Notes under the pieces: generated by a model
What the model was told of the DNA's origin: nothing
The model's database searches: none
The model's input: the letters and a program-made list of their open reading frames with translations, nothing else
Program-made: the position numbers and the translations under genes
Shown here: piece by piece, positions 10,761-14,144 of the stretch
How positions within the stretch are numbered: position 1 is the first letter of the stretch
Layout: every line of letters starts with the position of its first letter
Source: Gemmatimonadota bacterium
GTDB taxonomy: Bacteria > GCA-2686955
Assembly: GCA_002686955.1 (NCBI GenBank)
Contig: NYZA01000256.1
Coordinates: 1-16,300 of the forward strand
Direction of reading: 5' to 3'
DNA: 16,300 nt

Positions 10761-11061
10761 TGTGTTCTCCAGTGGTCGTTTCTGTCTTTCGAACGAGATG
10801 CACTTCCCCAATCCTGAGCTCCTCCCTCTGTGGCTGCGCGGAAAACCGCCGACTATTCGGCACTCTTGGACCCGGATTGACCCGATCGACGAGTTGAAGC
10901 CCAAATGTCGAGATTCGGTGTTGACAGCCGCTGCTCGACGGTTGAGTATGGATCCTGAAGTGATCGCGCGACCGCCTCGATGTTCGGCCTGTGCGCGGCG
11001 AGAAGAGCGCATTCAGAGGTGGACGAGGGGCGTGCGCAAGGCTAAGGAACTGGAGGTTCCC
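10443..11061. other. 619-nt stretch without a confident gene
   Basis: Apart from the doubtful minus-strand ORF and the TTGACA promoter candidate, I see only small inverted repeats: GGCAG/CTGCC (10493-10497 with 10503-10507), GTGCCG/CGGCAC (10564-10569 with 10586-10591) and GCCGA/TCGGC (10848-10852 with 10857-10861). The last, read on the minus strand, is followed by GGTTTT and could be a weak terminator. None has a convincing U-tract on the plus strand. All three plus-strand frames give low-complexity or non-protein-like products. Confidence 0.6.
10921..10949 (+). promoter_or_regulatory. Candidate promoter upstream of the secreted-protein pair
   Basis: A perfect TTGACA (10921-10926), 17-nt spacer, then GAGTAT (10944-10949), a weak -10. 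It is the only plausible plus-strand promoter in the gap and lies 135 nt upstream of the CCGCTCT repeat. Transcription would start near 10957, giving a leader of roughly 100 nt to the GTG at 11062. Confidence 0.35.
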
Positions 11062-11109
11062 GTGGGTCATCCGCTCTCCGCTCTCCGCTCTCCGCTCTCC
11101 GCTCTCTAA
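11052..11109 (+). CDS. Short SD-GTG reading frame running into the heptamer repeat (15 codons, then TAA)
   Basis: GGAGG (11052-11056) stands 5 nt before GTG 11062, the best Shine-Dalgarno/start pair upstream of the large secreted ORF. From that GTG the frame reads M-G-H then PLSALRSPLSAL and stops at TAA 11107-11109, directly after the repeat. In the given repeat number it encodes only this peptide. With 3 or 6 repeat copies the same start would continue into the signal-peptide-like stretch and the 992-residue ORF. It could instead be a leader peptide that controls downstream translation. The coding frame itself is 11062-11109. Confidence 0.5.
11071..11105 (+). repeat. Five perfect tandem copies of heptamer CCGCTCT
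   Basis: Thirty-five nt made of five identical CCGCTCT units, followed by CTAAC. The unit length is not a multiple of three, so every gain or loss of a copy shifts any reading frame crossing it. It starts nine nt after the first base of GTG 11062 and ends 60 nt before the first in-frame ATG (11166) of the secreted protein. In one frame three units encode a PLSALRS heptapeptide. Slipped-strand copy-number change is expected for such repeats. Confidence 0.98.
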
Positions 11110-11165
11110 CATCCGGTAGCTGGCAGTCAGCGCGCGGATCAGCCGCTTTCTTCGGCGGCGTCGCT

Positions 11166-14144
11166 ATGTTCCTTGTCACCGGTCTCCCGCTTCGGGCGGA
11201 TGGACAGAATCCTCCGCCGCAGCCGACGCCCGCCTACAACATGCTCGAGAACCCGGGGTTCGAGTTCTTACATGAGGAAGACGGCGGCGATTGCCAGAAC
11301 TTCAACGTCTTCTACTCTGAATGTTGCCAGGCCACCGAGGGAACCGAACCGCAGCAGATGTTCTGGTGGCGGCACACCGGTACGGTCCTCTGCGGCCCGG
11401 ACGGCCAGCAGGAGTTACGGCCGGTCTTGGTGCCGATCTATGAGGAGGGCACCGACCCCGAAGCGAACATCGATTTTGTCGAAGACGGCGTGCGCGACGG
11501 CGAAGTCCTGCACCTCCGAGGTCCACTCGCCGGTGAGAAACTCGTCTATCGAAGAGACCCCGAGCAGTGCGGGTGCCTCATTGACCGCACGGTGCAGTTC
11601 GATCAATGGGAAACCGGGAAGATTTATCTGACCTTCTGGGCCCGCGCCGCCTACACGCCCCAACTCAGAGTGAACTTCAACATCGTCTACGACGACGACT
11701 CCACGGAACTGATCGCGAGAGATTTCACCAGCTTCGACCCCTACGGCGCCTGGACCAAGTTCACCACGATTTTGACCGCCACCGCCGATCTTGACGGCCC
11801 GGTCAAGTCGATCGACCTGAGCTTGGAGCTCTTTCCGCGAGTCGGCCAAAGCGATTGCGACCCTCCCGCGTGCGACGAGGTTTGGCTCGACGACCTATAC
11901 CTGTACGACGGTCTGCAATGGACTCAGGTCGGCGGAGACCCGACCCATGTGCAAATCCACCCAGAAGGAACTCTCTTCGTCAACCAGGAGCCCTTCGTCC
12001 CCCGGATCCTTCACGACAACGGGCTCGTCACCGCACCGGACGAGATCAAGCAGCGATACAAAGAGATCGGTCCCGGAGGCGGAGGCGATCACGGCATGGA
12101 GTTCAACACGGTCGTGGCCCACCCCTCCTTCGCCTGGAACTACCCGACCAAGCGCCACCTTGCCCTGATGCTTGCCTCCGCGAACTCATGGAACATGAAG
12201 CTGCTCCCCTACCTGCCGGTCTACCCCAGGTTCGAGCCGCGCGTTCCCACATCGAACGATCTAGTCAAGGACTGGGTCGCCACCTTCAACAAGAACCCGG
12301 GGCTCTTGGGTTGGATCGTCGCGGATGAAATCACCTACCACAAGGTGAACGACGTGCTCGAGCAAGGGCAGTTCCTCGAAGCCTACGAAGAAGGTCTCGA
12401 GGATCCCGAATCCGGCGAGATCGAGTACTTCCACCCGGCATTCCTTTTCACCGCCGACGACGTATTCGCCGACGGTGAGAGCTTCGGCAACGGCAATTGC
12501 CAAGAGCCCACGGGTTGCCTGAGAAAGATGCTCAACGTCTGCCACATCCTGCTCCCGAACATCGTGCCGATCCGCAGCATGTACGACGAACCGATGGAGA
12601 TCATGAGCGCCGTCGCGGCTTGGTGCCGCACTGCGGCGGACCTTTACAACGACGAGAAAGACTGGACCGGCGACACCGAGAGCAGCTACCGCGGAACGGT
12701 CGGCGTGATTCAGTTCCGCCCCGAGCAGCCCGAGGGAACGCGACCGCCTTCGGTCGAAGAGATGCAGGTCATGTCGCTACAGCATGTCGCCAACGGCTCG
12801 CTCGGACTCATGTACTACGACAACCATTTCGGCTATTCAGGCGATCCCGACGACCTGTGGGACGTGCTGGATCCCAACAGTCGTGCCATTTACGACGCCC
12901 GCAACAACGGCGCTGCCACTGAGATCTACCTGGGTATGCCGGGCGTGCGTGCTGCTATCGAGGGTGTGATGGAGAGGAAGCAGCTGAATTTGCCGCCGTA
13001 TACGACGAGCCGGCATGTGATGTACCTGGATGGCGCGGATGTGGAGGATACCTGGTACGAGTCGAGCTTCCCAGACAAGACGCACCATGACAGCCCTCTG
13101 CTCGAAACAGGCCATCCGTGCGTGTACAACTGCTCGCAGAACGCCGTCGTTCGATTCAAAGACTTCGATGACAAGGTCTCAACCGATGCAGCCGACAAGA
13201 TCGAGCGCGCCTATCTTGTTTGGCCGGTGAAACGGGGCGATGATTGCACGGGCGCTAAGCCAAACTGCCCGCTAGGCTCATTGCAGCAGTTCAACTTCAG
13301 TCGCACTATGTTCATGAGGGCTCCGGGTGGGCCTGGAGCCCAACCGGACACCATCGAGTGGCGGGACGTCATAGCGGAAAGGACCTTCACGAACTATAGA
13401 GATGACAACGCAGGTTACTTCGGAGGAGGCAACGTGCTCGATGTAGCCCTCTGCGAGGGCGTTGCGCAGATTCGAGCCTTCGCCTCGAACGACCCGATCA
13501 TAAAGGCGAATGCCTGGCACTACAGCCCGCGGCTCGACATCTCCCGAATCGCTCGCTTCTGGAAGACGTACAACGGCGAGAACTCCACGCAAGATCTGAA
13601 CAACGGACTACACCTCCAGGGCTTCTACCGAACCCGCTGGGTCGAGAACAACGTCGTCTTCGCGAGCAGCGAGAACATCGAGAGCGACCCCAATCTGGGG
13701 AATCGGTTCAGACCTCATCTCGTCGTCTACACGAACCCCGATCCGGTCGCCACTCCCTCGATCGACTTCCCGGTCTTCGATGAGGTGGACGGGGGCTTCG
13801 TGGAGGTCTCGACTTTGCGAACGAACGACCCGAACGGAGTCGAGGTGCTCGCGATCAACAACGACGATGTTTCGCAGTGCGTCAAGCTCTTCGTTCCAAG
13901 GGCCACCGCCAACACCCAGGTGCAGGTCTTCGATGTGGAAAGCGGGAATCAGCTCGCCCCCCTGACGATTGTCCAGCAGCCGGACTGCGATTTCAATTCG
14001 ATCCAAGATTCCTACGATTTCTGCGGCTGTCCGCCCGCTCCCCCCGGCGTCTGTCCCCCCGAGGTCGCGGAGTGTCAGGTGCTCGGCATCGAAGACGACA
14101 TCCCGGGTTTGAAGAGCCGGATCTACTGGATCCCGAGGAGCTAG
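11166..14144 (+). CDS. Large Cys-rich secreted protein: jelly-roll-like domain, putative glycosidase-like TIM barrel, Ca-loop-like motif
   Basis: The ORF from ATG 11166 gives 992 residues, but that start has no Shine-Dalgarno and leaves only a stub of a signal peptide (MFLVTGLPLRADG). The open frame extends upstream without a stop to 11046 and encodes SARGSAAFFGGV immediately before, completing a typical signal sequence; no start codon exists in that frame. Residues 25-247 resemble a carbohydrate-binding jelly roll (NMLENPGFEF, LHLRGPL, YLTFWARA, EVWLDDLYLYDG). Residues about 268-560 look like a TIM barrel with the TLFVNQEPFVPRI entry strand of glycoside-hydrolase-like proteins and GWIVADE (382-388) as a possible acid site. 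Residues 940-952 (DCDFNSIQDSYDF, from 941) resemble a dockerin/thrombospondin-3 calcium loop. About 23 cysteines suggest an oxidised extracellular setting. I do not recognise a named family; glycosidase activity is inference. The next gene starts 2 nt after the stop. Confidence 0.8.
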   Translation: MFLVTGLPLRADGQNPPPQPTPAYNMLENPGFEFLHEEDGGDCQNFNVFYSECCQATEGTEPQQMFWWRHTGTVLCGPDGQQELRPVLVPIYEEGTDPEANIDFVEDGVRDGEVLHLRGPLAGEKLVYRRDPEQCGCLIDRTVQFDQWETGKIYLTFWARAAYTPQLRVNFNIVYDDDSTELIARDFTSFDPYGAWTKFTTILTATADLDGPVKSIDLSLELFPRVGQSDCDPPACDEVWLDDLYLYDGLQWTQVGGDPTHVQIHPEGTLFVNQEPFVPRILHDNGLVTAPDEIKQRYKEIGPGGGGDHGMEFNTVVAHPSFAWNYPTKRHLALMLASANSWNMKLLPYLPVYPRFEPRVPTSNDLVKDWVATFNKNPGLLGWIVADEITYHKVNDVLEQGQFLEAYEEGLEDPESGEIEYFHPAFLFTADDVFADGESFGNGNCQEPTGCLRKMLNVCHILLPNIVPIRSMYDEPMEIMSAVAAWCRTAADLYNDEKDWTGDTESSYRGTVGVIQFRPEQPEGTRPPSVEEMQVMSLQHVANGSLGLMYYDNHFGYSGDPDDLWDVLDPNSRAIYDARNNGAATEIYLGMPGVRAAIEGVMERKQLNLPPYTTSRHVMYLDGADVEDTWYESSFPDKTHHDSPLLETGHPCVYNCSQNAVVRFKDFDDKVSTDAADKIERAYLVWPVKRGDDCTGAKPNCPLGSLQQFNFSRTMFMRAPGGPGAQPDTIEWRDVIAERTFTNYRDDNAGYFGGGNVLDVALCEGVAQIRAFASNDPIIKANAWHYSPRLDISRIARFWKTYNGENSTQDLNNGLHLQGFYRTRWVENNVVFASSENIESDPNLGNRFRPHLVVYTNPDPVATPSIDFPVFDEVDGGFVEVSTLRTNDPNGVEVLAINNDDVSQCVKLFVPRATANTQVQVFDVESGNQLAPLTIVQQPDCDFNSIQDSYDFCGCPPAPPGVCPPEVAECQVLGIEDDIPGLKSRIYWIPRS

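What the first reader, a model, noticed from the sequence alone, without database searches (positions are those of the whole stretch)
11052..11200. Candidate phase-variable switch: heptamer repeat between SD/GTG and the signal peptide of a secreted protein
Seen: GGAGG-5 nt-GTG (11062), then from the fourth codon five exact CCGCTCT copies, then TAA in that frame. A different frame, open from 11046, carries an unmistakable signal-peptide-like run (AAFFGGVAMFLVTGLPL then RADG) into the 992-residue protein, yet has no ATG/GTG/TTG/CTG upstream of 11166. Arithmetic: adding one unit (6) or removing two (3) puts GTG 11062 in frame with the signal peptide and the whole protein, so copy numbers divisible by three are ON; the sequenced 5 is OFF. 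Known: Neisseria opa genes use CTCTT repeats near the signal-peptide codons in the same way. Inference: slipped-strand mispairing switches the secreted pair on and off. I know of no such system described for this gene type.
Basis: partly seen in the sequence, partly recalled or inferred. Interest (0 to 1): 0.88.

Follow-up and report, generated by a model that had tools for sequence, protein, structure and literature searches.

The report
Repeat switches on secreted-protein gene family
In an uncultured bacterium, at least five related genes carry a short slippery DNA repeat just after the start signal, each set so that the gene reads out of frame, which suggests the cells randomly switch a family of secreted proteins on and off as some pathogens do with surface proteins.

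Summary
In detail: GGAGG-5 nt-GTG (11062), five perfect CCGCTCT units from codon 4, TAA at 11107. The 992-aa protein and its hydrophobic leader lie in another frame, with no in-frame start before ATG 11166. Copy numbers 3 and 6 join them; 5 does not.

The decisive new evidence comes from the same genome, a 4.28-Mb draft from a lineage with only two held genomes in its phylum. Relatives of the gene carry the same device at the same place: C255 has six CAGCTCT units, C137 three, C270 a G9 run, C21 a TC6 run. All five are out of frame as assembled, and each has an ON copy number one or two units away. The C256, C255 and C137 arrays align from SD through start to 3' flank, with different copy numbers and a homogenised unit change, so the arrays have turned over. 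In 43% of the genome these are the only heptamer arrays; the two longest perfect short-unit arrays found are both here.

A translational phase-variation switch, like Neisseria opa but unrelated in sequence, is the best reading. Switching was not observed: no reads or second strain were available. The protein's function is unknown.

The parts
11052..11056 (+). Shine-Dalgarno-like GGAGG
   Evidence: sequence; 5 nt before GTG; ATG 11166 has no such site
11062..11064 (+). GTG start codon of the switch frame; aligns with the ATG start of C255 and C137
11071..11105 (+). five perfect CCGCTCT units (tract 11070-11106, 5.3 copies), from codon 4
   Evidence: unique in the genome
11107..11109 (+). TAA that ends the GTG frame at five copies (OFF state, 15 codons)
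11136..11204 (+). leader-like segment GSAAFFGGVAMFLVTGLPLRADG in the protein's frame
   Evidence: translation; hydrophobic core 2.35 over 10 residues; not tested with SignalP
11166..14144 (+). large protein of unknown function, 992 aa counted from ATG 11166; family of about ten full, partial or decayed copies in this genome
   Evidence: no Pfam/NCBIfam/PHROGs/PDB match
14147..16111 (+). gene 2, 654 aa, own SD and ATG, leader-like N-terminus, 2 nt after gene 1; joint switching not shown

Best explanation
This is a contingency locus. The CCGCTCT array gains or loses units by slipped-strand mispairing, so translation from GTG 11062 reads into the leader and the large secreted protein only when the copy number is a multiple of three. 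At the assembled five copies it ends after 15 codons and the protein is OFF. The gene belongs to a family in which at least five members carry such a repeat between start codon and mature protein, so cells probably differ in which members they make. Shown: the anatomy, the frame arithmetic, the recurrence in relatives within the genome, and copy-number and unit change between related arrays. Inferred: switching within a population, secretion, and the benefit.
For: Frame arithmetic. Same anatomy out of frame in C255 (CAGCTCTx6), C137 (x3), C270 (G9) and C21 (TC6). Arrays of C256, C255 and C137 align SD-start-array-flank with 5, 6 and 3 units and a homogenised CC/CA unit difference. The only heptamer arrays in 1.86 Mb sampled; C[N]GCTCTx3 found genome-wide only at these three genes. 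By chance, 5 of 7 family 5' ends with a repeat within 150 bp would be about 4e-12. Published phasome cut-offs (G 9, dinucleotide 6, units of 6-9 nt 3 copies; PMC5953494) are met by all five. Bodies of C256, C255 and C270 stay open for about 1000 codons with coding-type substitution. Most other G9 runs have the same frame on both sides.
Against: No copy-number variation within a population was seen. All five are OFF as assembled, which also fits decay, though chance gives (2/3)^5 = 0.13. C93, C176, C8, C197 and C21 are damaged copies, and C42 has a leader without a repeat. Five units is short: opa tracts of five or fewer units switched about ten times less often than 6-8 (PMC7157529). MutS is present.
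Confidence: 0.8

Rival explanations
1. Decay: the family is dying and the repeats are where 5' frameshifts happened to occur; the genes are simply broken.
For: Several family copies are truncated, deleted or carry stops; all five repeat-bearing copies are out of frame.
Against: Three copies keep about 1000 open codons with no other lesion. The breaks lie exactly at perfect repeats of four kinds at one position. Perfect arrays persist in anciently diverged copies with homogenised units.
Confidence: 0.12
2. Ordinary heptamer arrays of the kind found between genes in many bacteria, here close to genes by accident, with no regulatory role.
For: C[N]GCTCT arrays occur sporadically in many phyla, and intergenic heptamer arrays are known (PMC4692102).
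Against: In other genomes only 8 arrays in 80 loci met even a loose start-array-ORF test. Here all three heptamers sit at codon 3-4 of related genes, and two further members carry G9 or TC6 instead.
Confidence: 0.05
3. No switch: the protein is made in the assembled state by another route, such as start at ATG 11166, ribosomal or transcriptional slippage, or a copy-number error in assembly of a fixed in-frame gene.
For: ATG 11166 is in frame; RNA polymerase can slip on G9 runs such as that of C270 (general knowledge); the genome is a draft.
Against: ATG 11166 has no SD and would cut the leader to a short stub. C255 and C137 have no in-frame start ahead of their leaders. A 37-45-bp array is short compared with usual sequencing reads, and errors would be needed at five loci with different repeat types. 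Heptamer arrays are not known slippage sites for polymerase or ribosome (general knowledge).
Confidence: 0.06

Closest known systems
Neisseria opa genes (CTCTT/CTTCT repeats in the leader-peptide region; PMC5354566, PMC5953494, PMC7157529)
   Same: Multigene family; repeat inside the leader-coding region just after the start; unit gain or loss shifts frame and turns each member on or off independently.
   Different: Unrelated proteins (992-aa unknown family against outer-membrane Opa); heptamers, G9 or TC6 instead of one pentamer; uncultured lineage with no known host; switching not yet observed.
hmw1A/hmw2A of Haemophilus influenzae (heptanucleotide ATCTTTC; PMC8262952)
   Same: Heptanucleotide array controlling paralogous genes for secreted surface proteins.
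   Different: hmw repeats lie in the promoter and tune transcription gradually; here the array is inside the reading frame and acts on translation.
Intergenic heptamer arrays of Xanthomonas and Nostoc (PMC4692102)
   Same: Perfect heptamer tandem arrays.
   Different: Those are numerous, mostly intergenic and spread over gene classes; these are few and all inside the 5' ends of one family.

Membership tests
Repeat-mediated translational phase variation (contingency locus) | Perfect simple-sequence repeat above published phasome cut-off | tested here: met
   7-mer x5 here, x6 and x3, G9, TC6 in relatives; cut-offs from PMC5953494
Repeat-mediated translational phase variation (contingency locus) | Repeat unit not a multiple of three, placed so that unit change moves the start in or out of frame with the protein | tested here: met
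Repeat-mediated translational phase variation (contingency locus) | Copy number varies between cells or strains of one lineage | not testable with these tools
   no reads or second strain; only between-relative variation (5, 6, 3 units) was seen
Repeat-mediated translational phase variation (contingency locus) | Reversible on/off expression | not testable with these tools
   needs reporter, antibody or proteomics
Neisseria opa family | Opa outer-membrane protein homology | tested here: not met
   no Pfam or NCBIfam match
Neisseria opa family | CTCTT pentamer in the leader-coding region | tested here: not met
   unit is CCGCTCT or CAGCTCT; position in the leader-coding region is the same
hmw-type promoter heptamer | Array upstream of the start codon in the promoter | tested here: not met
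   array lies 6 nt after the start codon
Glycoside hydrolase (clan A-like) enzyme | Recognisable TIM-barrel family match | tested here: inconclusive
   only weak links: profile hits at residues ~270-380 in distant genomes (E 2e-6 to 8e-4), one of which resembles GH2 at E 0.1; fold predictions failed

The most novel reading that the evidence does not exclude
A whole secreted multigene family in an uncultured lineage is under combinatorial phase variation, each member with its own repeat switch. Repeats of unrelated kinds (two heptamers, a G run, a TC run) have been taken up at the same start-leader position, giving many on/off combinations per population.
Probability: 0.55. Interest if true: 0.75.

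Novelty: new variant of a known kind. Interest (0 to 1): 0.66.

Why it matters
Repeat-based phase variation is known mostly from host-adapted pathogens and commensals. Here it appears in an uncultured lineage with only two held genomes in its phylum, on an undescribed family of large secreted proteins, with several repeat types at the same place. That would extend contingency switching to a new lineage and gene type. It makes a direct test possible: counting copies in existing metagenome reads. It also warns that gene callers will annotate these proteins without their leaders.

Tried and rejected
Structure prediction of the window protein (827 and 396 residues, single sequence) gave mean pLDDT 36 and 33, so no fold search was made. 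Rows from the other contigs were not sent to that tool because its stated rule does not list loci of that origin. A scan of genome contigs (84,980 species) with the family alignment found no relatives. The one other genome of the phylum has no family member. 386 genomes gave only weak hits in the middle region. A heptamer hit in the sister genome was a chance match inside a subtilase-like gene. Missing MutS as a cause was rejected. Gene 2 as part of a repeated two-gene module was not supported. C93 (G9 beside an ATG, but no leader and an internal TAG) was not counted as a working switch.

Full report
WHAT IS THERE. GGAGG (11052-11056), five bases, GTG (11062), two codons, then five perfect CCGCTCT units (11071-11105) and TAA at 11107. 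The large protein (ATG 11166 to 14144, 992 aa) lies in another frame, open from 11046, with the leader-like stretch GSAAFFGGVAMFLVTGLPLRADG and no usable start before 11166. Copy numbers 3 and 6 connect GTG 11062 with leader and protein; 4, 5, 7 and 8 end within 23 codons.

IS IT CHANCE. The window is a complete contig of a 4.28-Mb draft genome (84.5% complete, 270 contigs). CCGCTCTx3 occurs only here. C[N]GCTCTx3 with up to two mismatches occurs at three places: here, C255 and C137. In 1.86 Mb of sampled contigs (43%) there is no other heptamer array of three or more copies; the two longest perfect short-unit arrays are C255 (45 bp) and the window (37 bp).

THE FAMILY. Protein and profile searches of the same genome found C255 and C270 (full length), C93 (one TAG), C176, C8, C197, C268 and C42 (partial), C21 (internal deletion) and C137 (a ~208-aa frame sharing only the first ~40-60 residues). 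Of those with a 5' end, C255 has SD-ATG-ACG-TCT-(CAGCTCT)n with about six units; C137 the same with three; C270 has GGGGGACGAG-ATG-KRVIACVIDTVVIGMVFA-G9; C21 has ATGATGGGCAAGTCT-(TC)6. Each start is out of frame with its protein as assembled, and each has an ON number one or two units away. The ON leaders include MTSQLSALSSQLSALRYGNWSRVFATCVILLLFGTARA, MTSQLSALLGNRSWQRTLAAVGILLLLRSALA and MKRVIACVIDTVVIGMVFAGGGSALA. C42 has a normal leader with no repeat, and C93 has G9 but no leader.

WHY SLIPPAGE. The C256, C255 and C137 segments align from SD to 3' flank with 5, 6 and 3 units, and every unit in the window array has CC where C255 and C137 have CA. A change spread through all units, in full-length copies only 29-42% identical in protein, means the arrays have turned over by expansion and contraction. 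Meanwhile the bodies of C256, C255 and C270 stay open for about 1000 codons, with least change at second and most at third codon positions. At the genome's repeat density, 5 of 7 family 5' ends having a repeat within 150 bp by chance is about 4e-12 (the cut-offs were mine but are no stricter than the published phasome cut-offs). Most other G9 runs have the same coding frame on both sides.

LIMITS. No reads, no other strain and no culture were available, so switching is inferred. Short arrays switch slowly: for opa, five or fewer pentamers gave 0.007 per month against 0.09 for 6-8 (PMC7157529); longer units need fewer copies (PMC5953494). 57% of the genome was not scanned for arbitrary repeats. 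Some family members are decayed. Secretion rests on composition.

FUNCTION. No Pfam, NCBIfam, PHROGs or PDB match. Weak profile matches in distant genomes at residues ~270-380 lead to a protein that itself weakly resembles the TIM barrel of GH2 enzymes, so a carbohydrate-active secreted protein is a guess, not a finding. No relatives were found in 84,980 species by one scan or in the only other genome of the phylum.

KNOWN OR NEW. The mechanism is that of opa (PMC5354566). hmw heptamers lie in promoters (PMC8262952). Heptamer arrays elsewhere are mostly intergenic (PMC4692102). Literature searches for phase variation in uncultured lineages found no description of this (open-access papers only). 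New here are the lineage, the protein family, a heptamer acting by frame at the leader, and several repeat types at the same position within one family.

Noticed in passing
L030 (C137) 1922-2548: Hybrid gene: the family's 5' switch and leader joined to an unrelated ~150-aa body, as if the switch-leader module can be put in front of other secreted proteins.
   Followed up: partly
L121 (C237) 18976-18984, minus strand: G9 run where the coding frame appears to change about 40 residues into a beta-helix-like repeat protein; perhaps another variable gene outside the family.
   Followed up: partly
L046 (C42) around 386-397, minus strand: Divergent family member with a normal leader and no start repeat, but a frame break at a C7 run in mid-gene.
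   Followed up: partly
L177 (C268), reverse strand, first ~60 codons: Reverse-transcriptase-like motif (QQGDPVAPLAF...YLDDGW) running in frame into a family fragment at the contig end; possibly a chimeric assembly.
   Followed up: no
window 10477-10600: Intergenic segment about 81% identical over 124 bp to the region upstream of C255; similar pieces seen by eye near the C176 and C197 copies, so perhaps an interspersed repeat that helped spread the family.
   Followed up: partly
L194 746-773 (marine gammaproteobacterial MAG): ATG directly followed by a CTGAGAG-type heptamer array and a 337-codon open frame downstream; a possible independent case of a start-proximal heptamer.
   Followed up: no
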